A DNA stretch of 64,000 nt, taken from assembly GCF_001442805.1 (NCBI RefSeq), contig NZ_CP011131.1:1488001-1552000 (forward strand). Direction: 5' to 3'. Positions 1,865-49,520 of the stretch are shown in pieces. This stretch comes from Lysobacter gummosus (GTDB lineage: Bacteria > Pseudomonadota > Gammaproteobacteria > Xanthomonadales > Xanthomonadaceae). Positions within the stretch are counted from its first letter, which is position 1. Every line of letters starts with the position of its first letter. The notes under the pieces are model-generated. The model had not been told where the DNA came from. It did no database searches and worked only from the letters and a program-made list of their open reading frames with translations. The position numbers and the translations under genes are program-made.

Positions 1865-4027
<2,163 letters not shown>

Positions 4028-4184: not shown

Positions 4185-5720
4185 ATGGATCCAGTCACCG
4201 AAACCAGCATCCAGGACTACCTGCGCGCCGACATCGTCGCCGCCGATCTGCCCGACCTGCAGCCCCTGCTGGGCGCGCGCGAACTGCTGCGCGCGTTCTC
4301 GACCCTGTTCCACGGCGGCGAAGAGTCGGTGATGGTGCGGTTGCTGGTGCTGCGCGCGATCGGCGAACGCGGCCAGGCGCCGGACTGGACCCCGCAGGAA
4401 CTGCGCGAACACTTCGCCTATCTGGAGCCGGTCAAGTTCGACACCGTGATCGGCCGCCTGCGCGACAACGATCTGCTGCTGTGGGACAACGAAAGCCAGC
4501 GCTACCGCATCAGCCCGGCCGGCCGCCAGGCGCTGTCGGCGATCGGCCTGCTGCTGCAGTTCAACCGCGAAGGCGACGAGCTGGCCTACGTCACCGCGCA
4601 GATCGCCGCCGGCCAGGCGGTGGGGCGGGTGCGTCCGGACGACCTGCAGCATCTGCTCTCGCGCCTCAACGAGCTGCGCGAAGACTTCGACCAGGCCGTG
4701 CTCAGCGGCTCGGAACACCGCATCCTGCGCGCCGCCGGCACTTTGCAGCAGGCCTGGCGCTGGATCGAGAAAGGCACGCAGATCGTCGAGGAAATTTCCT
4801 CCGACCTGGAACTCGACAGCCACACCCACCGCGTCGCCCAGCAGATCGGCCGCGCCCAGAGCGCGATGCTGCGCCAGGCCTCGGTGTTCCAGCGCGCGCT
4901 GAGCACGCTGGACCGCCATCGCGTGCATCTGGGCGCGAGCGGTTTGTCGTCCTCGGACGTGAACCGCTTCCTGCGCGATCTGGACATCGATTCGCTCGCC
5001 GCCATCGCCGACGACGTGCTCGCGCGTTCGGCGATTCCGGCCTTCGTGCTGTCGCCGATCGCCCTGGACGTGGCCGAGTACGAACTGGTCGAACGCGAAC
5101 GCGAAGCGCGCGAAGACCAGTCGCTGCCGCCGTCGATGGCCGCGCCCAGCAGCGAAGGCTCGCCGGCGGCGGCCACCGATTTCCAGTTCGCCGAACACTG
5201 GCTGGACGAACTCACCGCGCTGGCCGCGGCCGATGGCGAAGCGACGGCGTTGAGCGCGCTGGTGCCGCGCGACGGCTTCTCGCTGAGCGCCTACCGCATG
5301 TCGCTGCTCGGCCTGATCGGCGATCCCGGCGCGGAAAACCGCGAAGGCGTCAGCGCGTCGATGGCGCGTTTGCCGCTGGCCTGGCATGTCGAGCCCGAAT
5401 TCGAAATCGTCGAACGCGCCGGCGTGGCTTATATGAGCCGCAGCCGCCTGCAGACGGTGAGCGAAGAAGAACGCTTGCAGGCGCGCGCGCCGCGCAAGCG
5501 TTCCCGGGCCGACATCGCCGAAGCCGAAGCCTCCGACCAACTGGAGCGGGTGATCGAAGACGGCGACGACGATTCGGCCGCCGCGACCGGCGCGCGCAAA
5601 CGCGCCGCGCGAGCGAACAAGACCGACAAGAAAACCGATAAGAAGACCGCCTCCGCGCGCGGCACCGGGCAACCGGCCCGGCGCGCGAAAGCGGCGAAGG
5701 AAACCGCGGAAACCCCATGA
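4185..5720 (+). CDS. Kleisin-like subunit of a MukF/MksF-type condensin (putative)
   Basis: The 511-aa product starts MDPVTETSIQDYLR. The frame is open far upstream, but no other Met lies between 4185 and the antisense fadH region. Residues about 30-125 look like a winged-helix domain ending LLWDNESQRYRISPAGR; about 130-340 are helical. The C-terminus (about 445-511) is a Lys/Arg/Ala-rich, probably disordered tail with TDKKTDKKTASAR. MukF and MksF kleisins have an N-terminal winged helix, a helical middle and a C-terminal SMC-binding part. Identification rests mainly on that layout and on the operon order F-E-B, since primary similarity is weak by eye. Its TGA overlaps the next ATG (ATGA), so translation is probably coupled. 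It is related in layout to JetA of Wadjet systems. Confidence 0.6.
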   Translation: MDPVTETSIQDYLRADIVAADLPDLQPLLGARELLRAFSTLFHGGEESVMVRLLVLRAIGERGQAPDWTPQELREHFAYLEPVKFDTVIGRLRDNDLLLWDNESQRYRISPAGRQALSAIGLLLQFNREGDELAYVTAQIAAGQAVGRVRPDDLQHLLSRLNELREDFDQAVLSGSEHRILRAAGTLQQAWRWIEKGTQIVEEISSDLELDSHTHRVAQQIGRAQSAMLRQASVFQRALSTLDRHRVHLGASGLSSSDVNRFLRDLDIDSLAAIADDVLARSAIPAFVLSPIALDVAEYELVEREREAREDQSLPPSMAAPSSEGSPAAATDFQFAEHWLDELTALAAADGEATALSALVPRDGFSLSAYRMSLLGLIGDPGAENREGVSASMARLPLAWHVEPEFEIVERAGVAYMSRSRLQTVSEEERLQARAPRKRSRADIAEAEASDQLERVIEDGDDDSAAATGARKRAARANKTDKKTDKKTASARGTGQPARRAKAAKETAETP

Positions 5721-6709
5721 CCGACCCTATCGCTTCATTGATCGCGCGGCTGATCGCCGAGCGCTGGCTGCCGCGCGACGACATCGCCGTGCGCGAACTG
5801 CTCACCGACGCCGAATTGCGCAACGACCTCGACCGCCGGTTGGCGTCGGTGGGTTTGCGCCTGCTCGAACATCCTTATGCCGCCAACATCGCGGTATGCA
5901 TCGCGCGGCCGCAGGAATCGGCGGTGTTCGGCAGCGCCAAGGCCTGGTCCTCGACCAACCTGCAGCTCGACCGCGACGCGATCGCGCTGCTGGTGGTGCT
6001 GTGGGCGCTGCTGGTGCTGCCCAAGCGCCAGCGCCAGATCGCCCGACAACAGGCCGACCGCGATCAGGACCAGGAGCAGATGTTCGCCGAGCTCAAGCCG
6101 GTGCCGGTCGGCGCGGAAGTGGTCGAGCCGATCAACGAGCGCACCTTGCTCGCCGACTTCGGCGACAAGCTCGGCGGCAAGACCCGTATTCAGTTCAATC
6201 TCGGCGCACTGGCGCGGCAGGGCTTCATCCTGCGGCGCAAGGAGCGCATCCATGAAGGGCCGATGCTGGATCTGGCTCTTGATTACGAACGCATCGCCGG
6301 CCGGGTGATGGACGGCGCCTTGTCGTATGTGGTCGCCGAGGCGCGTCAGCACGCATTGGAACTGGCGGCGATCGAAGCGGCCGAAGCCGAAGCCGGCGAG
6401 AACGACGCGGCCGTTGCGGCGGCGAACGATGCCGAGGCCATCGACGACGCGACCGATGAAGCGGCGATCGAAAGCGACGGCTACATCGATTTCGACGCCG
6501 CGGCGTTCGAGCAGTCGCTGATGGAAGAAGACGACGCCGATGCGCCGGCCGATGCCGCGCTCGATGCGCACGACGCCGAAGCCATCGCCGCCGAGCCGTT
6601 GCCGCAGCTGGCCGAGGCCGGCGGCGCCGGCGATGGCGAACACACCGAACTCCCGGAATCATCCCCGGACACCGAAGCCAAGCACGAGGAGGCCGCGGCC
6701 GATGTTTGA
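5717..6709 (+). CDS. MukE/MksE-like (KITE) condensin subunit with acidic tail (putative)
   Basis: The 330-aa protein begins MTDPIASLIARLIAERWL and has a compact first part of about 210 residues consistent with tandem winged helices: LTDAELRNDLDRRLASVGLRL, then RTLLADFGDKLGG and LARQGFILRRKERIHEGP. The last 120 or so residues are Ala/Asp/Glu-rich and strongly acidic, opposite in charge to the basic tail of the preceding product. KITE proteins bridge the kleisin in SMC complexes. The gene overlaps its upstream neighbour by 4 bp and the downstream ATPase by 8 bp. Assignment is by position, size and winged-helix appearance; it corresponds to JetB in Wadjet nomenclature. Confidence 0.57.
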   Translation: MTDPIASLIARLIAERWLPRDDIAVRELLTDAELRNDLDRRLASVGLRLLEHPYAANIAVCIARPQESAVFGSAKAWSSTNLQLDRDAIALLVVLWALLVLPKRQRQIARQQADRDQDQEQMFAELKPVPVGAEVVEPINERTLLADFGDKLGGKTRIQFNLGALARQGFILRRKERIHEGPMLDLALDYERIAGRVMDGALSYVVAEARQHALELAAIEAAEAEAGENDAAVAAANDAEAIDDATDEAAIESDGYIDFDAAAFEQSLMEEDDADAPADAALDAHDAEAIAAEPLPQLAEAGGAGDGEHTELPESSPDTEAKHEEAAADV

Positions 6710-9506
6710 ATTCCGCTCGCTGGAAGTCGTGCACTGGGACTATTGGCAGCGTTTCCAGCTGCCGCTGGACGCGTCCATCGTCACCGTGGTCGGCCCGAAC
6801 GGTTCGGGCAAGACCACCTTGCTCGATGCGCTGCGCACCCTGCTCGCGATCGAAGACCGCGACACCGCCCGCGACTACAAGACGTATCTGCGCCATAACG
6901 GCAAGCCGTATGCATGGCTGCGCGGCGTGGTCAGCAATCGCCCCGACCGCCGCGGCGGCAGGCCGTTCTTTCCGATCAAGGACGATCTGGTCACCCTGGC
7001 CTGCCGCATCCGCAAGCGCGGCGGCGACTGGAGCCGCGACTACCAGATCGTCGGCGGCGACGTGCCGGTGGAAACGCTGGAGCAAGGCGGCGATTGGCTC
7101 GGCGTGCGCGACTACCGCGTGCGTCTGGCCGGTGCCGGCCTGACCCGCGCGATCTGCCGCGTGCTCACCCTGGAACAAGGCGCGACGGACAAACTCTGCC
7201 AGTACTCGCCGCGCGATCTGCTGCAGCTGATCTTCGACGTGTTCGAAGACAAGGCCGTGCTCGACGACTATCAGCGCGCGCGCACCGAGCAGTTCGATGT
7301 CGAAAAGGAATTGCAGCATCTGGGTCAGGATCTGGCCGGTCTGCACCTGCGCCTGGAATCGGCCAAGGCCGACGTACGCTCGTTCGAGGAAGGCAATGCG
7401 CTGCGCAATCAGCGCCAGCGCCTGGAAAGCGAGATCGCGCCGAAGGTGGAACTGGCCGACCAGCGCAACGCGATCGAAGGCGCCAAGCCGCGCCTGACCG
7501 GCCTGCGCCGCGCGCTGCGCGAGCGCGAACGCGCGCTGGAGGAGATGCGCAGTGAGGACGCGATCGCCTCCAGCGGCCGCGACGTGCTGGCCGAAGCGAT
7601 TCGCGAAGCGCGCCGTCAGGTCGTCGCCAGCGAACAGGCCTTCACCCAGGCCCGCGACGCCGCGCGCGACGCCGAGATGCTGGTCAAGCGCCGCGACGAA
7701 CTGGCCAAGCTGCAGGCGCAACGCGGCGAAGTCGATGTCGAAGCGCTCAGCGCCAGCGTCGAGAACGGACGCCGCCGCCAGGCCGAATTGCGCCTGGAAG
7801 CCGAGCGCGACCGCAAGCGCGCCGGGGAGATTTCCGCGCAGACCGCCGCGCTCAGCGGCGGCGGCCGCATCGTCGAACCGTTCGAACGCGATTTCCGTGC
7901 CGGGCTCGATCAGGCCGGCATCGCCCATCATGTGTTGACCGAACTGGTCGAGATCACCGATCCGCAGTGGTCGGTCGCCGTCGAAGCGGTGCTGGCGCCT
8001 TATCGCCATCTGCTGGTGCTGGAAAATCCCAAGCAGGCGCGCGCCGCGTGGCAACTCGGCGAAAGCCAGCAGTACCGCCATTTCATCGTCGCCGAACGCG
8101 CGCCGGTCACCAAGGCCAGCGCCGGCTCGTTGCTGGAAGTGGTGCGCTTCTCGGCCGATCCGCCGGCGTGGTTGCCGCGCCAGCTCGATCGCATCCGCCG
8201 CGTCACCGACATCGAACACGGCTCGCGCCTGCCGGCCGGGCAGGACTGGATCACCCAGAAGGGTTATCTGCGCGAAAGCCGCGGCGGTCGCCATATCGGC
8301 GGCAACCAGCACCACTTCGGCACCGGCGCGCGGCAGTCGCAACTGGTCGAGCTGCGCGCCGAACAGGCGGTGATCGCGCAGCGCGCGCAGTCGCGCGAAG
8401 CCGAGTTGCAGGAACTCAATCAGCGCGTGGACGCCGATCAGTCGCGCCTGCTCGGGCTGGATGCGACTCAGGAATTGGTCACCCGCGCGGCCGAATTCGC
8501 CGATGCCCAGGCGCGCCTGCCGGAACTGGCCGAAGCCGCCGGACAAGCCGCCGCCGCGTTGGCGCAGGCGCGGGCGAAGATCGACGAAGCCGCCGATCAG
8601 GACAAGGCCGAAGGCATCGCCGCGGCCAAGCGCCAGGGCCAGATCGACGCGCTCGCGCGCGAGCTGCGCGAACGCGCGCAGCAGATCAACGGCGAGCGCC
8701 AGAGCCTGATCCAGCGCATCGTCGACTATCGGCGCAAGCGCGCGCTGATGCCCGAATCCTGGCGCAGCGCGGTGGCCTTGCAAGCGGCGCGCGCCGAGTA
8801 CGAAAGCGCCTCGGCGGTGCGTCGCGAGATCGAGCGCATCGACGACCGCCTTTCGCGCGGCGGCTTCGTCACCGACGAATCGTGCATTCCCCTGCGCGAC
8901 AAGATCGGCGCCGATCACGACGAACTGGAAAGCTCGATCGGCCGTCGCGAAGCGCATCTGGAGCGCGCCAAACGGTTGACCGAGGAAGCGCGCGGCGCCT
9001 ACATCAACGTGCTGCGCGCGACCGTTCGCCGCTACAAGAAGAACCTCGCCGCGCTGGGCGAGCTGGCCGGCATCGGCGTGGACGCCGACATGCCGGAACT
9101 GGCCAACAACGACGTCGCCCTGGCCCAGGCTGGTTTGTCCGTGCGTTTCGATTTCGACCGCAAGGGCTGGATCGGCCTGGACGACGGCGAGGCCTCGGGC
9201 GGCCAGCAGGTGATGAAGTCGTTGCTGTTGCTGGTGGCCTTGCTGCGCGACGAAGACCAGCCGGGCGGTTTCGTCTTCATCGACGAACCCTTCGCGCATC
9301 TGGACGTGTTCAACATCGAAAAGGTCGGGCGCTTCCTGCGCGCGACCGACGCGCAGTACATCCTGACCACGCCGATCACGCACAACCTCAACGTGTTCGA
9401 TCCGTCGGACCTGGTGTTGACCACCAGCAAGCGCCGCGGCGGCAGCCCGTGGGCGGAAGCGGTGGCGGTGTTGAAGCGGCAGCGTGAGGACAGCAAGGCG
9501 GCGTGA
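6702..9506 (+). CDS. SMC-like ATPase of MukB/MksB type (putative condensin motor)
   Basis: This 934-aa P-loop protein has a split head. Walker A is GPNGSGKT at residues 31-38, the signature is ASGGQQ at about 831-836, and Walker B is FIDEPFAHLD at about 859-868. Between them lie two long Arg/Glu/Ala-rich coiled coils flanking a hinge-like domain around 380-480, which contains ITDPQWSVAVEAVLAPYRHLL. The head is SMC/RecN-like, and the shorter coils resemble MksB more than MukB, which is about 1480 aa. The ATG at 6702 is preceded by GAGGAGG and lies inside the upstream stop region. The operon ends here: no MksG/JetD-like nuclease follows, only repeats and then an EF-G gene. RecN or SbcC identity is unlikely given the two winged-helix partners. 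Confidence 0.78.
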   Translation: MFEFRSLEVVHWDYWQRFQLPLDASIVTVVGPNGSGKTTLLDALRTLLAIEDRDTARDYKTYLRHNGKPYAWLRGVVSNRPDRRGGRPFFPIKDDLVTLACRIRKRGGDWSRDYQIVGGDVPVETLEQGGDWLGVRDYRVRLAGAGLTRAICRVLTLEQGATDKLCQYSPRDLLQLIFDVFEDKAVLDDYQRARTEQFDVEKELQHLGQDLAGLHLRLESAKADVRSFEEGNALRNQRQRLESEIAPKVELADQRNAIEGAKPRLTGLRRALRERERALEEMRSEDAIASSGRDVLAEAIREARRQVVASEQAFTQARDAARDAEMLVKRRDELAKLQAQRGEVDVEALSASVENGRRRQAELRLEAERDRKRAGEISAQTAALSGGGRIVEPFERDFRAGLDQAGIAHHVLTELVEITDPQWSVAVEAVLAPYRHLLVLENPKQARAAWQLGESQQYRHFIVAERAPVTKASAGSLLEVVRFSADPPAWLPRQLDRIRRVTDIEHGSRLPAGQDWITQKGYLRESRGGRHIGGNQHHFGTGARQSQLVELRAEQAVIAQRAQSREAELQELNQRVDADQSRLLGLDATQELVTRAAEFADAQARLPELAEAAGQAAAALAQARAKIDEAADQDKAEGIAAAKRQGQIDALARELRERAQQINGERQSLIQRIVDYRRKRALMPESWRSAVALQAARAEYESASAVRREIERIDDRLSRGGFVTDESCIPLRDKIGADHDELESSIGRREAHLERAKRLTEEARGAYINVLRATVRRYKKNLAALGELAGIGVDADMPELANNDVALAQAGLSVRFDFDRKGWIGLDDGEASGGQQVMKSLLLLVALLRDEDQPGGFVFIDEPFAHLDVFNIEKVGRFLRATDAQYILTTPITHNLNVFDPSDLVLTTSKRRGGSPWAEAVAVLKRQREDSKAA

Positions 9507-9570
9507 GAGTCGCTTTGCTGCGGTGCCCGGAGTTCTCGAACCAACCCGCCCCAAAAAATCTCCCTAACGC

Positions 9571-9730
9571 CTCCCCCCTTTGAAAAAGGGGGGCAGGGGG
9601 GATTCGCTTTTCGGCTCCAGCCCGCCGTCGCCCCCAAGCAAAAAGCAAATCCCCCGCGCTGTAGATTCGCAACTGCGCCGGCATTGCGCCGGGCGCTCGC
9701 CCCCTTTTTCAAAGGGGGCGATGGGGTTGC
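9571..9730. repeat. Dispersed repeat, module A followed by module B
   Basis: Module A (about 9571-9615) contains CCCCCCTTTGAAAAAGGGG followed by a GGCAGGGGGGATT tail. Module B (about 9648-9730) starts AAATCCCCCGCGC and ends CCCCCTTTTTCAAAGGGGG. The same modules recur at 49324-49520 in the order B then A, and module A recurs with an insertion at 35959-36070. Each is GC-rich with internal dyads. It lies just after the SMC-like gene. Confidence 0.8.
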
Positions 9731-9806
9731 GTCCGCAGGAAGCAGCGCCCATGGGATCGTGCACCGGCTGGAACGATAAATCCCAGCCACAGCAGCCCAT
9801 CTCCGG

Positions 9807-9834
9807 TTGACTCCTGCCGCAGCGCCCTTACTCT
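9807..9834 (+). promoter_or_regulatory. Sigma-70-like promoter of the EF-G leader
   Basis: TTGACT at 9807-9812 and TACTCT at 9829-9834 are separated by 16 bp. This is one of the better -35/-10 pairs in the window. Transcription would start near 9841, upstream of the short leader ORF and terminator. Confidence 0.5.
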
Positions 9835-9876
9835 ATGCACACGCAAAACCACCCGATCTTTCAGGCCGTATCCGTC

Positions 9877-9975
9877 ATGAAGCGTTTCCCGCTACTGATA
9901 TCGCAGCACGCCTCGCGCGAGAGCGCGGGCCGGGTGCGCCTGCCTCCTGTGATCTTCGGTTCGCGGTCGATGTAA
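9877..9975 (+). CDS. Candidate leader peptide, 32 aa
   Basis: ATG at 9877 opens MKRFPLLISQHASRESAGRV and closes at TAA 9973-9975, 30 nt before the terminator stem. It contains an R-V-R triplet followed by L-P-P. Both R-x-R and Pro-Pro are known as ribosome-arrest-prone contexts, but no arrest is shown here. No clear Shine-Dalgarno sequence precedes the ATG. An in-frame upstream ATG at 9835 falls inside the predicted -10 region and is unlikely to be used. Confidence 0.3.
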   Translation: MKRFPLLISQHASRESAGRVRLPPVIFGSRSM

Positions 9976-10004
9976 TCCGACCCGCCGCAGCCACACCAGA
10001 CCAG

Positions 10005-10029
10005 AGCACCCGCACGGGTGCTTTTTTAT
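10005..10029 (+). terminator. Intrinsic terminator inside the EF-G leader
   Basis: AGCACCC and GGGTGCT form a stem with a GCAC loop, followed by TTTTTTATT. It lies 165 bp upstream of the EF-G-like gene and after no recognisable full-size gene, hence the attenuator interpretation. Confidence 0.75.
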
Positions 10030-10109
10030 TGCCTGACGTTTCCAAAAGCCCGACCGCCAAGGCCGGATTCCATCCACCGAAGTCGCATGAGACCTGAGGA
10101 GAACGTGTC

Positions 10110-10190
10110 GTGAATACCGCGGCCGATACCCAAACCTAGCCGCGCGCCCTGTCGCCAACCGGGGACGCGCGGCCTCCCTTTGTTGGCAAC
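10110..10190 (+). promoter_or_regulatory. Second short ORF and hairpin before the EF-G start (putative)
   Basis: After GAGGAG at 10096-10101, a GTG at 10110 opens a 9-codon ORF (MNTAADTQT, three ACC threonine codons) ending TAG at 10139. It is followed by a GC-rich hairpin, CCGCGCG near 10140 pairing with CGCGCGG near 10170. The loop sequence GCCAAC can alternatively pair with GTTGGC at about 10182, next to the start codon. Only the sequence arrangement is seen; a regulatory role is inference. Confidence 0.25.
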
Positions 10191-10205
10191 ATCGTGAATC
10201 TCCTT

Positions 10206-12254
10206 ATGAACACCACCATTGCTTCCAGCTGGCGCAACCTCGGCATCATCGCCCACGTAGACGCGGGCAAAACCACGCTCACCGAACGCCTGTTGTGGAA
10301 AACCGGCGCTATCCATCGCATGGGCGAAGTCCACGACGGCGCGACCACCACCGACTTCACCAGCATCGAGAAAGACCGCGGCATCACCATCGGCGCCGCG
10401 GCCGTGCAGACGCGCTGGACGCCGCAAGGCCAGAGCGAACATCGCCTGACCATCATCGACACGCCCGGCCATATCGACTTCGCGATCGAAGTCGAGCGTT
10501 CGCTGCGCGTGCTCGACGGCGCGGTCGCCGTGTTCAGCGCGGTCGATGGCGTGCAGCCGCAATCGGAAACCGTGTGGCGCCAGGCGCGCCGGCACGGCGT
10601 GCCGCTGATCGCGTTCGTCAACAAGATGGATCGCGTCGGCGCTTCGTTCGAGCGCACGCTCGCGCAGATGCGCGAGAAGCTCGACGCGGTGCCGTGGCCG
10701 CTGGGCCGGTCGGTCGGTATCGAAAACGAGCTGCAAGGCTGGGTCGATTACGTCGCCCGCGACATCGTGCTGTGGGACCAGGACAACCACTTGTCCCGCC
10801 GTCCCTGGAACGACGACGAGGCGCGCGAGTTCGAGCCGCTGCGTCTGCGCCTGATCGAAGCGGTCGCCGATCACGACGACGAACTGGCCGAGGCCTTCCT
10901 CGACGCGCGCGCCATCGATGCCGGGCTGCTCAAGGCGGCCTTGCGTCGCGGCACGCTCAAGGGCGCGGGCACGCCGGTGCTCGGCGGTTCGGCGTTCAAG
11001 AACAAGGGCGTGGAAACGCTGTTGGATGCGATCGTCGATTACCTGCCTTCGCCGCTGGATCGGCCGTGGGTGCACGCCGAAAGCGAACGCGGCGAAGTCG
11101 CGCTCGCGCCGGATGCGTCCGGGCCGCTGGCCGGCTTGCTGTTCAAGATCGTGCACCAGGAACACGGTGCGCTGTCGTTCGTGCGCCTGTACTCGGGCAC
11201 GCTGCGGGTCGGCGATACGGTGTGGGCGTCGCGTCGCGACAAGCCGCAGCGCGTCGGCCGCCTGGTCGTGGTCCAGGCCAATCGCGGGCACGATGTCGAT
11301 GTCGCCTATGCGGGCGAAATCGTCGCGATCCCGGGTTGGAAGGACGCGGTCAGCGGCGAGAGCCTGAGCGATACCGGCGAGCGGTTGGTGCTGGACACGA
11401 TCCAGGCCCAACCGGCGGTGTTGTCGTGGCGCCTGACCGCGGGCAAGTCGGGCGATCTGATCCGTCTGGGCCAGGGCTTGGCGAGTCTGGCGCAGGAGGA
11501 CCCGTCGTTCCGCGTCGGTACCGATTCGGAAACCGGCGAGACCTTGGTGTGGGGCATGGGCGAACTGCATCTGGACGTGATGGTCGAGCGCCTGCGCCAG
11601 GAGTGGAACGTCGAGGTGCGCACCGGTTCGCCGCGCGTGGCTTATCAGGAAACCCCGAGCCGCGCGGTGCGCGGGATCGAAGGCAAGCTGTCCAAGCAGA
11701 ACGGCGGCACGGGGCAGTTCGCCCGTGTGGTCATCGACGTGGAGCCGCGCGAAGACGGGCAGTTCGAGTTCGTCGATCGCACGACCGGCGGCGTGGTGCC
11801 GCGCAACTTCGTCAACGCGACGGAAAAGGGCTTGCGCCTGGCGTTGGCGGAAGGGCCGTTGGGGTATCCGGTGGTCGGTTTGACGGTGATCTTGACCGAC
11901 GGCCAGACCCACGCGGTGGATTCGTCCGAACTCGCGTTCCAACGCGCGGCGGGCGATGCGCTGAAGGCGGCGCTGGCAGAAAGCGGCACAACGCTGCTCG
12001 AGCCGGTGATGGCGCTGGTCATCGATACGCCCGCCGGCAATGTCGGCGACGTGGTCGGCGATCTGCAACGCCGCTCCGGCCGCGTGCTCGGCATCGAGGA
12101 CAAGGGCCTGCGCACGGACGTGACCGCGCGCGCGCCGCTGGCGCAGTTGTCGGGTTACACGACCGCGTTGCGGTCGCTGACCCAGGGCCGCGCTTCGGCG
12201 TCGATGGTGTTCAACGGCTACGAGCAGGCGCGCAGTGCGCCGAAGGCCGCGTAA
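10206..12254 (+). CDS. Elongation factor G paralogue (FusA2-like translational GTPase)
   Basis: From ATG 10206 the product is 682 aa; a GTG at 10194 would add four residues. GTPase motifs are AHVDAGKTT, DTPGH, NKMD and GSAFKNKG. Domains follow the EF-G order, ending in domain IV/V with GDVVGDLQRRSGRVLGI and a C-terminal YTTALRSLTQGRASASM segment. EF-G hallmarks such as GVQPQSETVWRQA separate it from TetM-type protection proteins. It is shorter and more divergent than housekeeping EF-G and is not next to rpsL, rpsG or tuf, so it is probably a second copy. Paralogous EF-Gs can serve in ribosome recycling or confer drug tolerance; neither is shown here. The attenuator-like leader upstream is unusual for this family. 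Confidence 0.85.
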   Translation: MNTTIASSWRNLGIIAHVDAGKTTLTERLLWKTGAIHRMGEVHDGATTTDFTSIEKDRGITIGAAAVQTRWTPQGQSEHRLTIIDTPGHIDFAIEVERSLRVLDGAVAVFSAVDGVQPQSETVWRQARRHGVPLIAFVNKMDRVGASFERTLAQMREKLDAVPWPLGRSVGIENELQGWVDYVARDIVLWDQDNHLSRRPWNDDEAREFEPLRLRLIEAVADHDDELAEAFLDARAIDAGLLKAALRRGTLKGAGTPVLGGSAFKNKGVETLLDAIVDYLPSPLDRPWVHAESERGEVALAPDASGPLAGLLFKIVHQEHGALSFVRLYSGTLRVGDTVWASRRDKPQRVGRLVVVQANRGHDVDVAYAGEIVAIPGWKDAVSGESLSDTGERLVLDTIQAQPAVLSWRLTAGKSGDLIRLGQGLASLAQEDPSFRVGTDSETGETLVWGMGELHLDVMVERLRQEWNVEVRTGSPRVAYQETPSRAVRGIEGKLSKQNGGTGQFARVVIDVEPREDGQFEFVDRTTGGVVPRNFVNATEKGLRLALAEGPLGYPVVGLTVILTDGQTHAVDSSELAFQRAAGDALKAALAESGTTLLEPVMALVIDTPAGNVGDVVGDLQRRSGRVLGIEDKGLRTDVTARAPLAQLSGYTTALRSLTQGRASASMVFNGYEQARSAPKAA

Positions 12255-12294
12255 GTTTCATGCTGTAGATAAGTGCGGTACGCAGAAAGGGAGA

Positions 12295-12320
12295 GGGGCC
12301 GGCATGCCGGCCCCTTTTTT
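12295..12320 (+). terminator. Terminator after the EF-G paralogue
   Basis: A perfect 20-nt palindrome, GGGGCCGGCATGCCGGCCCC (12295-12314), is followed by six T residues, 40 bp after the stop codon. Confidence 0.85.
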
Positions 12321-12373
12321 GTTTGGGATTGCTTTCGGGATTGCTTGTTTGCACATGGCCCGCGTTCGCTTTT

Positions 12374-12464
12374 GCTCGTCATTCCCGCGAAGGCGGGAAT
12401 CCAGGGCTTCACCGCGGCATGACTCTGAAGTCTCTGGATTCCCGCCTTCGCGGGAATGACGAGC
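12374..12464. repeat. Paired inverted GTCATTCCCGCG repeat
   Basis: A perfect inverted pair of 31-bp arms, GCTCGTCATTCCCGCGAAGG... and its complement, separated by about 30 bp. Each arm itself contains the dyad ATTCCCGC/GCGGGAAT. This repeat family recurs at 16024, 18541 and 57821. It lies between convergent genes. Confidence 0.85.
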
Positions 12465-12535
12465 AATAAAGAGGGGCCTCGCGGATGAATTCATTGCGAG
12501 CCAGGCAAGCGCCCTACCTCAACTACGCAGCGACC

Positions 12536-13552
12536 TCACCACCCAGCCAACACCAACTTCCCGATCGTCGTCCCCGACTCCAATCGCCGATGCGTCTCGC
12601 GCATGTTCGCCGCATCGATCTTGCCGAGGGTTTCGGTATGCGTGCCCTTGAGTTCGCCCGCGTCGATCAACTGCGCCACGCGATCGAGAATCTTGCCCTG
12701 TTCGACCATGTCCGGCGTCTTGAAGCGCGGCCGGGAGAACATCATTTCCCAGTGGATGCCGATGCACTTGGCCTTGTACGGGTCGCCGATCTTGAGCGCG
12801 CCGGAGGGCTCCACGATCAGTCCGACATGGCCCTGCGGCGCCAGCACTTCGCCCAGCGTTTCCCAATAGCGGTCGGTGTCGGCCAGATTCAAGGCGGCAT
12901 CGATCTGTTCGAAGCCCAGCGCCTTGAGTTGCGGCGCCAGCGGCTGGCGGTGATCGATCACGTGATCGGCGCCCATCTGCCTGCACCACTCGACGCTTTC
13001 GCTGCGCGAGGCGGTGGCGATCACGCTGAAGCCGGCGCGCTTGGCGATCTGGATCGCGATCGAGCCCACGCCGCCGGCGCCGGCGATGATCAGCAGCGAC
13101 TTGCCGCGGCCGCCGTTGTCCGCATCGAACGGCATGCGCTGGAACAGCAGCTCCCAGGCGGTGATGGCGGTCAGCGGCAGCGCCGCGGCCTGGGCCGCGC
13201 TCAGCGAGGCCGGCGCGGCGCCGACGATGCGCTCATCGACCAGATGCAGTTCGCTGTTGGTGCCCGGACGGGTGATGTCGCCGGCGTAGTAGACGCGGTC
13301 GCCGACCTTGAAGCGGGTGACGTCTTCGCCGACCGCTTCGACGATGCCGGCGGCGTCAAAGCCCAGCACGCGCGGCTGCGCTTCCACCTGCGGCTTGGGC
13401 GAGCGCACCTTGGTGTCGACCGGATTGACCGAGATCGCCTCGACCCGCACCAGCAGATCGTGGCCGCCGGCGGTCGGCGCGGGCAGTTCGACATCCACCA
13501 GCGATTGCGGATCGTCGATCGGAAGATAACGGGTGAGGGCTACGGCTTTCAT
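12536..13552 (-). CDS. Zinc-type alcohol dehydrogenase-like / quinone oxidoreductase family protein
   Basis: From the ATG at 13552 (MKAVALTRYLPIDDPQSL) the protein has 338 aa, normal for MDR-superfamily oxidoreductases. It shows the N-terminal GroES-like fold and the NADPH-binding motif GAGGVGSIAIQIAK, with HVIDH further on. The catalytic Cys/His zinc ligands and the four-Cys structural zinc loop of true alcohol dehydrogenases are not visible, which fits the zinc-independent quinone oxidoreductase branch. The electron acceptor is unknown. The frame is open further upstream, but this start gives the canonical N-terminus. The gene lies downstream of the SGNH hydrolase gene on the same strand, 107 bp away. 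Confidence 0.87.
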   Translation of the reverse strand: MKAVALTRYLPIDDPQSLVDVELPAPTAGGHDLLVRVEAISVNPVDTKVRSPKPQVEAQPRVLGFDAAGIVEAVGEDVTRFKVGDRVYYAGDITRPGTNSELHLVDERIVGAAPASLSAAQAAALPLTAITAWELLFQRMPFDADNGGRGKSLLIIAGAGGVGSIAIQIAKRAGFSVIATASRSESVEWCRQMGADHVIDHRQPLAPQLKALGFEQIDAALNLADTDRYWETLGEVLAPQGHVGLIVEPSGALKIGDPYKAKCIGIHWEMMFSRPRFKTPDMVEQGKILDRVAQLIDAGELKGTHTETLGKIDAANMRETHRRLESGTTIGKLVLAGW

Positions 13553-13659
13553 TGCGAACTCCAGACTGCGTGGGAGGGGCGGGCCGGCATCGATGCGTCG
13601 ATGCCGGATTGTGCGGGAAAGAATCGAAGGGTTCTGCGAAAAACGGACAGGTGTCCGCG

Positions 13660-14907
13660 TCAACGCGGGGCGAACAACACCGCTTCGTCGATGGCCTCGG
13701 CCATCGCGCGATAACCGGCGTCGCCCGGATGCAGGTGATCGCCGGAGTCGTAGGCCGGCAGGAATCGCGCCGGATGCGCGGGGTCGCGGGTGATCGCGTC
13801 GAAATCGACCACCGCATCGAACTCGCCGCTGTCGCGGATCCAGGCGTTGACGGTCTGGCGCACCTTGTCCTTGTCGGTGTTGTAGTAGCCGCTGATCGGC
13901 GAATCCGCCAGCGCGCCTTCGAACGGCGTCAGCGTGGCGCCGACGATGCGCAACGAATTCAGGCGCGCACGCGCGATCAACTGGCGATAGCCGGCGATCA
14001 GGCGCTGCGCGCTCATCGGCGCGCGCTTGGGTTCGAAGCTGCTGCCGGGCCAGCCGATGTCGTTGATGCCGAGCAGGACGAAGACGGTGTCGGCCTTTTG
14101 CCCGAGCACGTCGCGCTCGAAGCGCGCCAGCGCGCTTACGCCCATGCCGTCGTTGAGCACCTGGCCGCCGGAAATGCCGGCGTTGAGCACGGCGACATCG
14201 CGCTGGGCCAGACGCGCGGCGAGAAAGTCCGGCCAGCGCCGGTTCTGGTTGGGCGTGGACGCGGCGCCGTCGGTGATCGAATCGCCGAGCACGATCACGC
14301 TGCGCGTCGCCGCCGGCGCTTGCACATACACGCCGCTGAGGAAGGGGCGGGTCTGGATCGTCTCGCCTTGCAGTTGCGCATCGGCGGCGCGGTTGCCGGA
14401 GGTGAGGTAGGCGTCCTGGCGGCCTTCCCAGTGCAGGGTCTTGAGCGCGGTCGTCTGCGGCAAGTACAGGCTGACCGCGACTTCGCCGAGCGCGGCGACA
14501 TCGAGCGCGATGGGATCGCTGAGCACCGGCGCGCCGGGCTGGATCGTCACCGACGGCTGGCCGCCGAAGGTGATCGCGCGATCGCTGCCGGCCTGGATGC
14601 GAGCGCCGCCGCCGCTGCGGGCGATGTGCGCCGCGCCGATGGTGACCGGCTGGTCGCCGTAGGCGTTCGACAGCTCGATGCGCAGTTGCTTGCCGCCGAG
14701 GCTGACCCGCGCGACCTGGCGCACGGTCTGGTTGCGCAGCTGCGCCGGCGCGCCGTTGGGCAGGACGAAGCCGGCCGGCAATGCGGCCTGCGGGCTGGCG
14801 GTCCAGGTGCCGACCCAGCGCGTAGAGTCGGCGGCCTGCGCCGGGGCGGCGGCCAGGGCCAACGCGAGTGCGGCGGCGGCGAGGGGTTTGGGCAAGTGAG
14901 TGGTCAT
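13660..14907 (-). CDS. Secreted SGNH/GDSL hydrolase
   Basis: The 415-aa product has a signal peptide (about 1-25, ending AAPAQAA), a beta-rich domain of roughly 170 residues, and an SGNH hydrolase domain. Block I is VIVLGDSITDG with catalytic Ser at 210; GINDIG is block III; SGDHLHPGD near the C-terminus carries the catalytic Asp and His of block V. Family members are esterases or lipases acting on acyl or acetyl esters, and the two-domain form is common in secreted plant-polymer esterases. The gene diverges from a LysR regulator over a 131-bp gap with a perfect dyad, suggesting control by that regulator. Confidence 0.87.
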   Translation of the reverse strand: MTTHLPKPLAAAALALALAAAPAQAADSTRWVGTWTASPQAALPAGFVLPNGAPAQLRNQTVRQVARVSLGGKQLRIELSNAYGDQPVTIGAAHIARSGGGARIQAGSDRAITFGGQPSVTIQPGAPVLSDPIALDVAALGEVAVSLYLPQTTALKTLHWEGRQDAYLTSGNRAADAQLQGETIQTRPFLSGVYVQAPAATRSVIVLGDSITDGAASTPNQNRRWPDFLAARLAQRDVAVLNAGISGGQVLNDGMGVSALARFERDVLGQKADTVFVLLGINDIGWPGSSFEPKRAPMSAQRLIAGYRQLIARARLNSLRIVGATLTPFEGALADSPISGYYNTDKDKVRQTVNAWIRDSGEFDAVVDFDAITRDPAHPARFLPAYDSGDHLHPGDAGYRAMAEAIDEAVLFAPR

Positions 14908-14997
14908 GGCCTGAATTCGTAAGACGTCGGGGATTCGACGACGCTCAAGCTAGGTTCTTCTGTATTGGCCCGGTAGAAGGCAAGATCGCATATGCTC

Positions 14998-15014
14998 CAT
15001 TCCATATTGGAATG
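14998..15014. promoter_or_regulatory. Perfect 7+3+7 dyad between SGNH hydrolase and LysR genes
   Basis: CATTCCA-TAT-TGGAATG. It sits 25 bp upstream of the LysR start and 90 bp from the divergent hydrolase start, the usual place for a LysR-type binding site or autoregulatory operator. Confidence 0.6.
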
Positions 15015-15038
15015 AGTGGGCGAGTTCCCGGGAGCCTC

Positions 15039-15944
15039 ATGGACACACTCCGCGGCATGCAGACCTTCGTCCGCGCGGTAGAACTGGGCAGCCTGTCGGC
15101 GGTCGCGCGCGAGCAGGGCAGTACCCAGCCGACCATCAGCAAGACCGTGGCCGCGCTGGAGCAGGAACTGGGCGTGCGCTTGCTTCAGCGCAGCACCACC
15201 CATCTGGCGCCGACCGAACAGGGCCGGCGCTTTTACGAACGCGCGCGGCGGGTGATCGAGGAATACGGCGAAGCGGTGGCCGACGCGCGCGGCCTGAGCG
15301 AAACGCCGGCCGGCCTGCTGCGGATCAGCGCGCCGGTCAGCGTGGGCGTGTTGCGGATGAATCGGCTGGTGCAGGAATTTCTCGCGCTGTATCCGCAGAT
15401 CGAGATCGAGCTGATCCTCAACGACCGCTTCGTCGATCTGGTCGAGGAAGGCATGGACGTGGCGCTGCGGCTCGGCGCCAACCTGCCGCCGAACGTGGTG
15501 GCGCGCCGCGTCGCGGTGTCGCCGCGCGGATTGGTGGCCTCGGTCGGCTATCTGGCGCAGCATCCGCGCATCGATGCGCCGGACGATGTGCTGGCGCACA
15601 ACTATCTGCGTTTCGCCTGGGCCAGCGAGAGTTTCGAATTGCACGGGCCCGGCGGCGAAGTGCGGCGGCTGCAGGCGAACGGGCGTTATCGGATCAACAA
15701 CTCGCTGGGGATACGCGAAAGTTTCCTGATCGGCGCGGGCCTGGGCCTGGCGCCGGCGTGGTTGGTGCAGGATCTGATCGACAGCGGCGAACTGGCCTGG
15801 GTGTTGCCGCAGTGGAAGGCGTCGGCGCATGAGGCGTATCTGCTGTATCCGGCGCGACGATATTTGCCGTTGCGCACGCGGGTGCTGGTCGAGTTTCTGC
15901 GCGAACGCTTGCCGCAGCTGCCGGGGTTTGTTGCGGTGGAGTGA
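15039..15944 (+). CDS. LysR-family transcriptional regulator
   Basis: The 301-aa product MDTLRGMQTFVRAVELGSLS... has the LysR N-terminal winged helix-turn-helix (VAREQGSTQPTISKTVAALEQ, residues about 20-40) and a C-terminal effector domain of the LTTR type ending PQLPGFVAVE. The ATG at 15039 gives the canonical N-terminus; the longer open frame is ignored. Family members bind dyads upstream of divergent target genes. The target here is inferred to be the SGNH hydrolase gene, and the inducer is unknown. Confidence 0.9.
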   Translation: MDTLRGMQTFVRAVELGSLSAVAREQGSTQPTISKTVAALEQELGVRLLQRSTTHLAPTEQGRRFYERARRVIEEYGEAVADARGLSETPAGLLRISAPVSVGVLRMNRLVQEFLALYPQIEIELILNDRFVDLVEEGMDVALRLGANLPPNVVARRVAVSPRGLVASVGYLAQHPRIDAPDDVLAHNYLRFAWASESFELHGPGGEVRRLQANGRYRINNSLGIRESFLIGAGLGLAPAWLVQDLIDSGELAWVLPQWKASAHEAYLLYPARRYLPLRTRVLVEFLRERLPQLPGFVAVE

Positions 15945-16023
15945 GAGGGGGCGGGCTTTTGTCGAGAAGGCGGAAGAGCCTTCACGCATGGAATTCGTCA
16001 CGAACGCATTACGTCCTTCCAAG

Positions 16024-35958: not shown

Positions 35959-36070
35959 GTTCCCCCCTTTGAAAAAGGGTGAAGGGCCGCGCTTGCGAAC
36001 CGCAGGTTCGCGCGGCACTGAACGCCCGCAGGCTGTGCCTGCGGGCCGGAGGGCAGGGGGGATTTAGCTT
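35959..36070. repeat. Dispersed repeat module A with an inserted pair of hairpins
   Basis: Starts TTCCCCCCTTTGAAAAAGGG and ends GGCAGGGGGGATTT, as in module A elsewhere. Between these are two extra dyads, CCGCGCTTGCGAACCGCAGG-like and CCCGCAGG/CCTGCGGG. Confidence 0.75.
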
Positions 36071-47019: not shown

Positions 47020-48489
47020 ATGTGCGGCATTCTCGGTATCGTCGGCAACACGGATGTCGCCGCTCAGCTCTACGACGGACTCACGGTGCTGCAGCATCGC
47101 GGCCAGGATGCGGCCGGCATCGCCACCGCCGACGGCGCGCGCCTGCGCGTGCACAAGGGCAACGGTCTGGTCAGCGACGTGTTCGACGAAAAGGCCATGC
47201 GCCTGCTCGAAGGCCGGGTCGGCATCGGCCATTGCCGCTACCCGACCGCGGGCAGCGAGGGCTCCGACGAGGCGCAGCCGTTCTACGTCAACTCGCCCTA
47301 CGGCATCGCCCTGGCCCACAACGGCAACCTGATCAACACCGACACTTTGCGCCGCGAAGTGTTCGAACAGGATCGCCGCAACGTCAACACCGAATCCGAT
47401 TCGGAAGTGCTGCTCAACGTGTTCGCGCACGAGCTCGACCGCCAGCGCGTGCTGACCGCCGAGGCCGCGTTCGGCGCGATCGAAGGCGTCAACCGCCGCT
47501 GCATCGGCGGCTACGCGGTGGTCGCCACCGTGCTCGGCCTGGGCCTGATCGCGTTCCGCGACCCGCACGGCATCCGCCCGCTGGTGCTGGGCAAGCGCAA
47601 CACCGGCGGCCAGGACGAATATGCGGTCGCGTCCGAATCGGTGGCGCTGGACCTGCTCGGCTTCGAACGCCTGCGCGACGTGCGTCCGGGCGAGGGCATC
47701 GTGATCAACGCGCGCGGCGAGATGTTCTCGCGCCAGTGCGCGCAGCCGCGCCAGCACGCGCCGTGCATCTTCGAATACGTGTACTTCGCCCGCCCCGACT
47801 CGATGATGGACGACGTCTCCGTGCACAAGGCGCGCATGCGCATGGGCCAGACGCTCGGCGAGAAGATCCTGCGCCTGCGTCCGCAGCACGACATCGACGT
47901 GGTCATCCCGATTCCCGATACCTCGCGCGACTCGGCCCTGGAAATCGCCAACACCCTGGGCGTGAAGTACCGCGAAGGCTTCATCAAGAACCGCTACGTC
48001 GGCCGCACCTTCATCATGCCCGGGCAGGGCGAGCGGGCCAAGTCGGTGCGGCGCAAGCTCAATCCGATTCCGCTGGAATTCCGCAATCGCGTCGTGCTCC
48101 TGGTCGATGACTCGATCGTGCGCGGCACCACCTCGCGCCAGATCGTGCAGATGGCGCGCGACGCCGGCGCGCGCAAGGTGTACCTGGCCTCGGCCGCGCC
48201 GCCGGTGCGTTTCCCGAACATCTACGGCATCGACATGCCCTCGACCGACGAACTGGTCGCGCATGGCCGCACCGACGACGAAGTGCAGACGCTGCTGGGT
48301 TGCGACTGGCTGATCTATCAGGACCTCGACGCGCTGGAGCAGGCGGTGTCCGGTCCCAAGCACCGCATCGACCATTTCGATTCCTCGTGCTTCAACGGCG
48401 AATACGTCACCGGCGTGGAACCGGGCTATTTCGAGCGCATCCAGCAACTGCGCTCGGACGAAGCCAAGAAGACCCGCCGCGCCTCGTAA
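47020..48489 (+). CDS. purF: Amidophosphoribosyltransferase
   Basis: 489 aa. The nucleophile Cys2 follows the initiator Met (MCGILGIVG), with no propeptide. An N-terminal glutaminase domain (class II amidotransferase) is followed by a PRTase domain with [19 protein letters not shown], the PRPP-binding motif. It makes 5-phosphoribosylamine from PRPP and glutamine, the committed step of purine synthesis. It sits at the end of the conserved cluster. Confidence 0.94.
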
Positions 48490-48505
48490 GCGCGGGCGCG
48501 CGGCC

Positions 48506-49321
48506 ATGTCGAGTTCGAAGTCGCTGTTCGACGCCGCGCGCGCCTGCCTCGACGCCGATACGCCGCAGGCCAAGGTCGAACTGACCTTCGCCTGCGCGCA
48601 GGCCTACGCGCGCGGCGAACTGTGTATTCCCGACGACGCGCCGGCGCCCGAACCCATTCGCATGCCCGGCCGCCCCGCGCGGCCGGCGCTGGTGCATCCG
48701 CGCGAGTTGCCCAAGCGCGGCTTCGGCACCGCCGAGGGCCGCGCCGCGTTCGTGCACGCGATCGCGCACATCGAATTCAACGCCATCGACCTGGGCTGGG
48801 ACGCGGTCTATCGCTTCCGCGGCCTGCCGGCGCAGTTCTATGCCGACTGGGTCGGCGTCGCCAACGACGAAGCGCGCCACTTCAGCCTGTTGCGCGAGCG
48901 CCTGCGCGAGCTGGGTTTCGACTACGGCGATTTCGACGCCCATAACGGCTTGTGGGAAATGGCCGAGAAGACCGCGCACGACGGCCTGGCGCGCATGGCG
49001 CTGGTGCCGCGCGTGCTGGAAGCGCGCGGCCTGGACGTGACGCCGGGGATGATCGTCAAGCTGCGTTCGCTCGGCGACAGCGCCACGGTGGCGATCCTGG
49101 AAACGATCCTGCGCGAGGAAGTCGCCCACGTCGCCGCCGGTTCGCGTTGGTATCGCTGGTACTGCGAACGCGCCGGAATCGACCCGGTGCCGCGTTTCCG
49201 CGAACTGCTGGCCGAATACGCGCGCGCGGTGTTGTATGGGCCGTTCAACTTCGAAGCGCGCAGCGCGGCGGGGTTCGACGATGAGGAACTGCGGATGCTC
49301 GAGGCGTTCGTGGCGCGCTGA
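48506..49321 (+). CDS. Ferritin-like domain protein of the DUF455 type
   Basis: 271 aa. Helical segments contain HIEFNAIDLGWDAVYRF, DEARHFSLLRERL and REEVAHVAAGSRW, giving the Glu/His residues of a di-iron ferritin-like fold. Members of DUF455 are widespread and poorly characterised, and some act in tRNA hydroxylation or like processes. It starts 17 bp after purF, so it may be co-transcribed. Confidence 0.8.
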   Translation: MSSSKSLFDAARACLDADTPQAKVELTFACAQAYARGELCIPDDAPAPEPIRMPGRPARPALVHPRELPKRGFGTAEGRAAFVHAIAHIEFNAIDLGWDAVYRFRGLPAQFYADWVGVANDEARHFSLLRERLRELGFDYGDFDAHNGLWEMAEKTAHDGLARMALVPRVLEARGLDVTPGMIVKLRSLGDSATVAILETILREEVAHVAAGSRWYRWYCERAGIDPVPRFRELLAEYARAVLYGPFNFEARSAAGFDDEELRMLEAFVAR

Positions 49322-49323
49322 AG

Positions 49324-49520
49324 CGAATCCCCCGCGCGGTTGTTTTCCGGGTGTTTTGGACTTGCGCAACGCGCCGCCCCCTTTTTCAAAGGGGGCAACA
49401 TGACGCGGCGTTCTTTCAGATCGAATGCCGCCAATACCAGATCGCACACGCCAGCGATCCCCCTCCCAAGCCCGTGCTGTTCCCCCCTTTGAAAAAGGGG
49501 GGCAGGGGGGATTTGCTCTT
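49324..49520. repeat. Dispersed repeat, module B followed by module A
   Basis: Module B, containing GCGAATCCCCCGCGCGG and CCCCCTTTTTCAAAGGGGGC, lies at 49324-49397. Module A (TTCCCCCCTTTGAAAAAGGG, GGCAGGGGGGATTTGC) lies at about 49478-49515. The order is the reverse of the copy at 9571-9730, and the element ends carry inverted GAATCCCCC/GGGGGATT. Confidence 0.8.

What the first reader, a model, noticed from the sequence alone, without database searches (positions are those of the whole stretch)
4185..9506. Nuclease-less MukFEB/MksFEB-like condensin operon
Three overlapping genes encode a winged-helix kleisin-like protein (basic tail), a small KITE-like protein (acidic tail) and a 934-aa SMC-like ATPase with Walker A, SGGQ and Walker B. 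The order F-E-B and overlaps match MksFEB/Wadjet JetABC, but no MksG/JetD nuclease follows; instead there are repeats and an EF-G gene. Opposite charges of the two tails may promote assembly. This could be a condensin used for chromosome organisation, an anti-plasmid system whose nuclease is missing or elsewhere, or a distinct family. Motifs are seen; identities of the two small subunits are inferred.
Basis: partly seen in the sequence, partly recalled or inferred. Interest (0 to 1): 0.85.

Follow-up and report, generated by a model that had tools for sequence, protein, structure and literature searches.

The report
SMC complex with an optional nuclease
In a Lysobacter-like bacterium, a three-gene DNA-handling machine related to the Wadjet anti-plasmid system has no DNA-cutting subunit, while some relatives carry that subunit right beside it, so the cutter seems to come and go while the rest is kept.

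Summary

In 23 of 76 scorable relatives a JetD-like nuclease gene directly follows B. It was not found in the window's genome or in 10 other nuclease-less genomes. In the Lysobacteraceae clade the operon keeps one chromosomal site with or without it, and some sister species differ in it; one nuclease looks recently imported. F, E and B stay under purifying selection without it (median dN/dS 0.07-0.20). The operon is accessory (17 of 119 family genomes) and canonical Smc is present.

Best reading: a working accessory condensin whose nuclease is optional. Nuclease-less Wadjet relatives are known; the repeated turnover at one locus is what stands out. The charged-tail idea is not supported.

The parts
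4185..5720 (+). F: kleisin-like subunit (MksF/JetA position), 511 aa; conserved core about residues 1-422, variable tail after it
5717..6709 (+). E: KITE subunit (MksE/JetB position), 330 aa; core about residues 1-210, acidic tail of 120 aa
6702..9506 (+). B: SMC-like ATPase (MksB/JetC position), 934 aa, with ATPase motifs and a weak SMC-type hinge match at residues 409-485
   Evidence: profile match to type I JetC, probability 99.8, E 6e-28, 859 columns
9507..10193 (.). Place where some relatives carry the JetD-like gene; none found here, holds two palindromic repeats
   Evidence: no D match in the six-frame profile search of the fetched loci, which include L001 (window stretch with 1.5 kb beyond B) and L006; tblastn of six D proteins against window 9401-16000 gave only scattered weak matches, best E 0.016
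1868..3970 (-). Flanking marker gene: FAD oxidoreductase of the FadH/OYE kind, 5' of F in 36 of 36 loci of the Lysobacteraceae clade of the B tree
10194..12254 (+). Flanking marker gene: elongation factor G; next to the oxidoreductase in two same-genus genomes that lack B

Best explanation
F-E-B is a divergent Wadjet/Mks-group SMC complex. F bridges two B ATPase heads, E dimers bind F, and ATP cycles of B move or loop DNA (inferred from the group). The ancestral operon probably had a fourth gene, a JetD-like Toprim nuclease, which cuts small circular DNA in known Wadjets. In Xanthomonadales the nuclease has been lost, and at least once apparently re-acquired, while F, E and B were kept. In the window's Lysobacter lineage the complex most likely works as an accessory, dispensable condensin beside canonical Smc, as described for P. 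aeruginosa MksBEF. Shown here: subunit identities for E and B (F less firmly), no JetD-like gene found genome-wide, turnover of the nuclease at one site, purifying selection, intact ATPase motifs. Inferred: DNA looping, a chromosomal role, and the direction of most changes.
For: E = JetB fold; F best fold hits MukF/JetA, weak; B = JetC by profile. JetD-like gene directly after B in 23 of 76 scorable loci, 53 without (the loci are the best 80 of 119 found); ENRTSFE and DP.PAG invariant in 17 of 17 aligned of the 23; PADLOC JetD1 in 6 of 6 tested, best E 1e-10 to 2.5e-16. No D in the window genome or 10 other nuclease-less genomes, while both D+ controls ring. Same site with and without D: 36 of 36 loci of the Lysobacteraceae clade; D cleanly in or out in L025 against L027/L033 and L035 against L065. 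At least 7 changes of D state on the tree. Nuclease-less clades: median dN/dS F 0.12-0.20, E core 0.07-0.13, B 0.075-0.175; Walker B and signature identical in 78 of 78. Canonical Smc present.
Against: The operon is patchy: B in 17 of 119 sampled genomes of the family (64), and the site is empty in two same-genus genomes, so it is not an essential condensin. No experiment or direct link to the chromosome. Purifying selection shows function, not which function. F's fold match lies in the range common for helical models, and by profile F matches no type I JetA (1.5%) but weakly JetB (19.8%). B's best PADLOC hit is MAD3 (4.3e-22), ahead of JetC1 (4e-18), and its best NCBIfam hit is Smc, far below cut-off. 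Losses alone need 15 events on the F+E+B tree, whereas 7 changes suffice if gains are allowed, so direction is partly open.
Confidence: 0.55

Rival explanations
1. A defence system in decline: the nuclease was lost first and the rest is a remnant on the way to deletion.
For: Patchy presence, 17 of 119 sampled family genomes; empty sites in two same-genus genomes; several separate nuclease-less lineages; B interrupted in one MAG (L052) and with an internal stop in one other genome (L102).
Against: Purifying selection on F, E and B within nuclease-less clades (median dN/dS 0.07-0.20) and intact ATPase motifs; large nuclease-less groups (16 rows of Dyella/Luteibacter, one of them unscorable; 6 of Lysobacter).
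Confidence: 0.15
2. Defence without cutting: the complex binds or compacts plasmid or phage DNA and silences it, as discussed for eukaryotic Smc5/6.
Against: No direct evidence; in the passages read, Wadjet defence runs through DNA cutting by JetD/MksG.
Confidence: 0.17
3. The complex still cuts DNA with a nuclease supplied in trans.
For: Not excluded for nucleases unrelated to JetD.
Against: No match to the family's own D profile or to JetD_C in the window genome, and no DUF3375 kleisin there at E 1e-10; the gene next to B differs among nuclease-less groups.
Confidence: 0.08
4. An SbcC/RecN-type repair ATPase with unrelated neighbours.
For: AAA-type matches and a sub-cut-off SbcC_Walker_B match (23.1 of 27 bits).
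Against: Profile match to JetC over 859 columns, weak SMC-type hinge match and no CxxC motif in the translated B, conserved operon with a JetB fold.
Confidence: 0.02

Closest known systems
Wadjet type I (JetABCD / MksBEFG)
   Same: Gene order A-B-C(-D); JetC-like ATPase; JetB fold; some relatives carry a JetD1-like nuclease after B.
   Different: F and E match no JetA/JetB sequence model well; B is shorter (about 930 aa against 1107-1180 in 13 of 14 type I proteins extracted here, one 1223, all by the first start codon) and the window B passes the SMC_N cut-off, which 0 of 8 type I JetC reach, though 7 of 8 match it below cut-off; no JetD-like gene found in the window genome. That DUF3375 marks type I JetA is recalled.
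P. aeruginosa MksBEF
   Same: A nuclease-less MksBEF beside canonical SMC; [quoted passage not shown]
   Different: Sequence relation to the window's proteins was not tested: no named P. aeruginosa MksBEF sequence was reached. There the loss is an inference stated in a review; here D+ and D- sisters share one site.
MukBEF
   Same: Nuclease-less member of the Wadjet group (PMC7617805, passages); MukF and MukE folds are among the matches.
   Different: MukB N-terminal model stays below its cut-off (17.1 of 23 bits); B is much shorter than MukB (MukB length recalled); Smc is present here, whereas MukBEF is said to have replaced Smc-ScpAB (PMC10586767).
Smc-ScpAB
   Same: SMC_N matches 20 of 20 B proteins tested; hinge model matches 9 of 20, the window one below cut-off.
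   Different: The genome has a separate Smc (1047 bits), which a phmmer search does not relate to B.

Membership tests
Wadjet/Mks group (broad) | SMC-like ATPase homologous to JetC/MksB | tested here: met
   hhalign 99.8%, E 6e-28, 859 columns; PADLOC JetC1 4e-18, second to MAD3 4.3e-22
Wadjet/Mks group (broad) | KITE subunit of JetB/MukE fold | tested here: met
Wadjet/Mks group (broad) | Kleisin of JetA/MukF fold | tested here: inconclusive
Wadjet/Mks group (broad) | Co-directional operon kleisin-KITE-SMC | tested here: met
   order and strand met; the kleisin label for F is itself inconclusive
Wadjet type I defence system | JetA (DUF3375) and JetB (DUF4194) sequence families | tested here: not met
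   no match to window F or E; of 33 E relatives 1 to 5 match single JetB models weakly, best E 0.006, and of 38 F relatives none matches a JetA model; hhalign F-JetA 1.5%, E-JetB 0.3%
Wadjet type I defence system | JetD nuclease in the operon | tested here: not met
   not found in window or genome; present in 23 of 76 scorable relatives
Wadjet type I defence system | Restriction of small circular plasmids | not testable with these tools
   needs transformation assays
MksBEF condensin without nuclease | Three subunits, no MksG/JetD-like gene in the genome | tested here: met
   an unrelated nuclease partner is not excluded
MksBEF condensin without nuclease | Role in chromosome organisation or segregation | not testable with these tools
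   needs deletion, imaging, Hi-C
MksBEF condensin without nuclease | Sequence orthology to P. aeruginosa MksBEF | not tested
   no named P. aeruginosa sequence was reached
MukBEF | MukB N-terminal domain over its cut-off | tested here: not met
   17.1 bits, cut-off 23
SbcC/Rad50 | CxxC zinc hook at the coiled-coil apex | tested here: not met
   no CxxC in the B translation (read by eye); SMC hinge model matches weakly, 19.5 of 22.5 bits

The most novel reading that the evidence does not exclude
The nuclease is a plug-in: an SMC complex kept at one chromosomal site switches, in both directions and repeatedly within one bacterial family, between a plasmid-cutting immune machine (with JetD) and a chromosome-organising machine (without it), by gain or loss of one adjacent gene. 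The core complex would need little or no change to serve either role.
Probability: 0.3. Interest if true: 0.78.

Novelty: new variant of a known kind. Interest (0 to 1): 0.6.

Why it matters
A review suggests that MksBEF, and likely MukBEF, arose from Wadjet, in the P. aeruginosa case by loss of JetD (PMC10586767, passages). Here the same step is visible between sister species at one site, so it can be tested directly: does a complex without JetD fold the chromosome, and does the matching complex with JetD do both? The window's F and E also escape the Pfam, NCBIfam and PADLOC models, so standard defence annotation is likely to miss the family in Xanthomonadales and Betaproteobacteria.

Tried and rejected
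Charged tails as an assembly device: rejected. A decayed JetD after B: tblastn of six D proteins against window 9401-16000 gave only scattered weak matches, best E 0.016. A JetD elsewhere in the genome: none found with the family's own D profile; JetD_C also gave none, but that model hardly sees this family's D (below cut-off in the one of 6 tested that it matched), so it adds little. A conserved replacement gene after B: not seen; neighbours differ, for example a methyltransferase-like small gene in Tahibacter and an EF-hand-like one in Dyella (both named by eye, no family search), EF-G or a zinc-binding alcohol dehydrogenase in the Lysobacteraceae clade. Spread on plasmids or phages: B in 2 of 72,556 plasmid records, as a fragment (50% of the query, 40% identity), in 0 of 50,697 phage records, and F in 0 plasmid records. 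Origin from the genome's own Smc: no phmmer match of that Smc to 11 B or 14 type I JetC proteins. Profiles of F and E against solved structures by sequence: only chance-level hits; D likewise, and hhalign of D against 10 type I JetD gave 0.6%, so D's JetD identity rests on PADLOC JetD1 and DUF2399 matches and motifs. VIA rows do not list JetA for F; this shows nothing. Not all sister pairs are clean: in L014/L015 and L035/L036 about 0.9-1.0 kb of other sequence fills D's place, and L061/L012 share nothing downstream within 6 kb. Class-wide search with the B profile found the window genome plus two hits over the hinge-side stretch in reading frames over 1,100 aa that I take for Smc without testing; at most 2 candidates per genome were scored. 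In one search I also tried to collapse weak branches before counting; I do not use that count because I did not verify that support values were read correctly. Searches for prior reports: 'MksB' with 'Xanthomonas' 0 papers, 'Wadjet' with 'Lysobacter' 0 papers, at least three of Wadjet/JetD/MksB/'loss of JetD' 7 papers, MksBEF with condensin and Pseudomonas aeruginosa 20 papers, and two wider listings of which I saw 15 of 18 and 15 of 141; open-licence library only, and of six papers I saw passages, none in full. PMC7617805 lists Wadjet operons in a supplement that I could not read, so this family may already be in it.

Full report
WHAT IS THERE. The window lies at 1488001-1552000 of a 6.06-Mb, one-contig genome; the nearest named relative found is Lysobacter sp. 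ISL-50 (L006, 99% identical in B). Three co-directional genes overlap: F 4185-5720, E 5717-6709, B 6702-9506. B carries Walker A, Q-loop, SGGQQ, Walker B, D-loop and H-loop; SGGQQ, FIDEPF and AHLD are identical in 78 of 78 B proteins aligned, Walker A in 77 with one substitution in the other (L052, L057 and L067 not included).

THE NUCLEASE THAT IS MISSING. A genome-collection scan found 119 stretches encoding a relative of B; the best 80 were kept, so counts refer to these. Comparison of 31 representative loci showed F-E-B conserved and a fourth gene of about 400 aa directly after B in many. It is JetD-like: 6 of 6 tested match PADLOC JetD1 models (best E per protein 1e-10 to 2.5e-16) and one of the 6 passes DUF2399; ENRTSFE, DP.PAG and KGEQEG are invariant in the 17 aligned of the 23 found. 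A profile search of the loci finds it in 23; 53 lack it and 4 could not be scored (L016, L046, L067, L076). By group, 17 of 19 loci of the Betaproteobacteria side of the tree carry it (one lacks it, one unscorable), but only 6 of 61 on the Xanthomonadales side (52 lack it, three unscorable). A whole-genome search of 13 genomes finds no D in the window genome or 10 other nuclease-less genomes, and finds it in the 2 positive controls. JetD_C and DUF3375 also give nothing in the window genome.

ONE SITE, NUCLEASE IN OR OUT. In 36 of 36 loci of the Lysobacteraceae clade of the B tree the same oxidoreductase gene lies 106-1177 bp 5' of F (distance from the aligned end): 30 without D, 5 with D, one unscorable; the other 44 loci, L035 among them, show no such neighbour. 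Some sisters differ cleanly: in L025 (D+) against L027 and L033 (D-) the sequences align up to the end of B and resume at the end of D; L035 against L065 likewise. Other pairs are less clean: about 0.9-1.0 kb of other sequence in L015 and L036, and no shared downstream sequence between L061 and L012. In two same-genus genomes without B the oxidoreductase and EF-G genes are neighbours; in two other family members without B the oxidoreductase lies next to the alcohol dehydrogenase; in a third neither was seen within 1.5 kb. B is present in 17 of 119 sampled genomes of the family, 9 of 54 genera, and in 1 of 143 sampled genomes of the class, the window's own. The system is therefore accessory.

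LOSS OR GAIN. On a tree of 77 B proteins (74 scored) the D state needs at least 7 changes, 5 of them forced by well-supported branches. If only losses are allowed, 15 are needed on the F+E+B tree of 74 loci. D and B trees of 22 D+ loci both separate the Xanthomonadales from the Betaproteobacteria side (support 100/98 and 100/100), and D and B distances correlate (r 0.89; 0 of 2000 permutations as high), which favours an old association. Against strict vertical descent: within the Xanthomonadales D joins L018 with L025 (97/93), B does not; D there is far more divergent than B (44-56% against 63-79% identity); and in L014 D has GC3 57% against 81-89% for F, E and B, with the end of B also lower in GC and only 75-77% identical to its sisters. 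I read this as one recent import of D by recombination into B, together with losses elsewhere. L025 shows no such mosaic.

STILL AT WORK WITHOUT THE NUCLEASE. Within nuclease-less groups (6 Lysobacter, 11 Dyella/Luteibacter, 7 Pseudoxanthomonas, 4 Luteimonas-like loci) median dN/dS is 0.12-0.20 for F (core; whole gene in the last group), 0.07-0.13 for the E core and 0.075-0.175 for B, while the tails lie at 0.38-0.91 (Nei-Gojobori, not corrected for codon bias). The genome also encodes canonical Smc. F-E-B is thus a second SMC complex, maintained but dispensable.

MECHANISM. By analogy with MukBEF and Wadjet (PMC10586767, PMC10512200, PMC7617805; passages seen): F would bridge the B heads, E would bind F, and ATP cycles would capture and extrude DNA. 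With JetD, small circular DNA is recognised and cut; without it the complex can only bind and loop DNA. The best-supported role is an accessory condensin, as described for P. aeruginosa MksBEF (PMC7485682, passages), which PMC10586767 says likely originated by loss of JetD. PMC7617805 states that several Wadjet-group members lack MksG/JetD, so the absence itself is not new. New here, as far as the listed searches go, are this divergent family and the repeated turnover of the nuclease at one site.

THE CHARGED TAILS. E's tail has net negative charge in 74 of 77 rows and is longest in Lysobacter (net -26 to -41 over 108-129 residues); F's tail ranges from net -6 to +8 and is +4 in the window. 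Both evolve close to neutrally. An assembly role is not supported.

WHAT THE CHECK CHANGED. On going back over the calls I qualified the Lysobacteraceae count (tree clade), added the unclean sister pairs, the D/B tree conflict, the MAD3 and Smc top hits and the dropped rows, and corrected the wording on L052 and two gene lengths on L168.

Noticed in passing
window 9574-9592, 9700-9718, 35963-35981, 49377-49395, 49483-49501: Palindromic repeat CCCCCTTTGAAAAAGGGGG occurs at five places (11 matches on both strands with up to 2 mismatches, 0 expected), twice as pairs in opposite orientation, like REP-type elements (that name is recalled).
   Followed up: partly
L168 (Variovorax sp. RA8 plasmid 2), 2976-8597: An IS1071-family transposase gene sits just before a partial B (about 457 aa), followed by an overlapping gene of about 393 aa that may be the nuclease (not tested) and xseA/xseB; the only plasmid trace besides a like match in Variovorax sp. 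WDL1.
   Followed up: no
L014 12700-14028: JetD-like gene and the end of B have atypically low GC, suggesting that the nuclease was brought in recently by recombination.
   Followed up: partly
L039 12823-13455; L079 12817-13413; L040 12793-13125; L044 12790-13119: In nuclease-less Tahibacter and Dyella a different small gene overlaps the end of B (methyltransferase-like or EF-hand-like by eye); function with the complex unknown.
   Followed up: no
window 48446-48548: ARAGORN reports a tRNA-Thr of 103 bases, longer than usual; Rfam at gathering threshold found no RNA in the window, so it may be a false call.
   Followed up: no
L052 and G268 (L102): B is interrupted (two reading frames listed) in one MAG and has an internal stop in another genome; sequencing error or decay not distinguished.
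   Followed up: no
L070, L072: Records titled Bordetella parapertussis are MAG contigs whose B groups with other Betaproteobacteria MAGs; the titles look doubtful.
   Followed up: no
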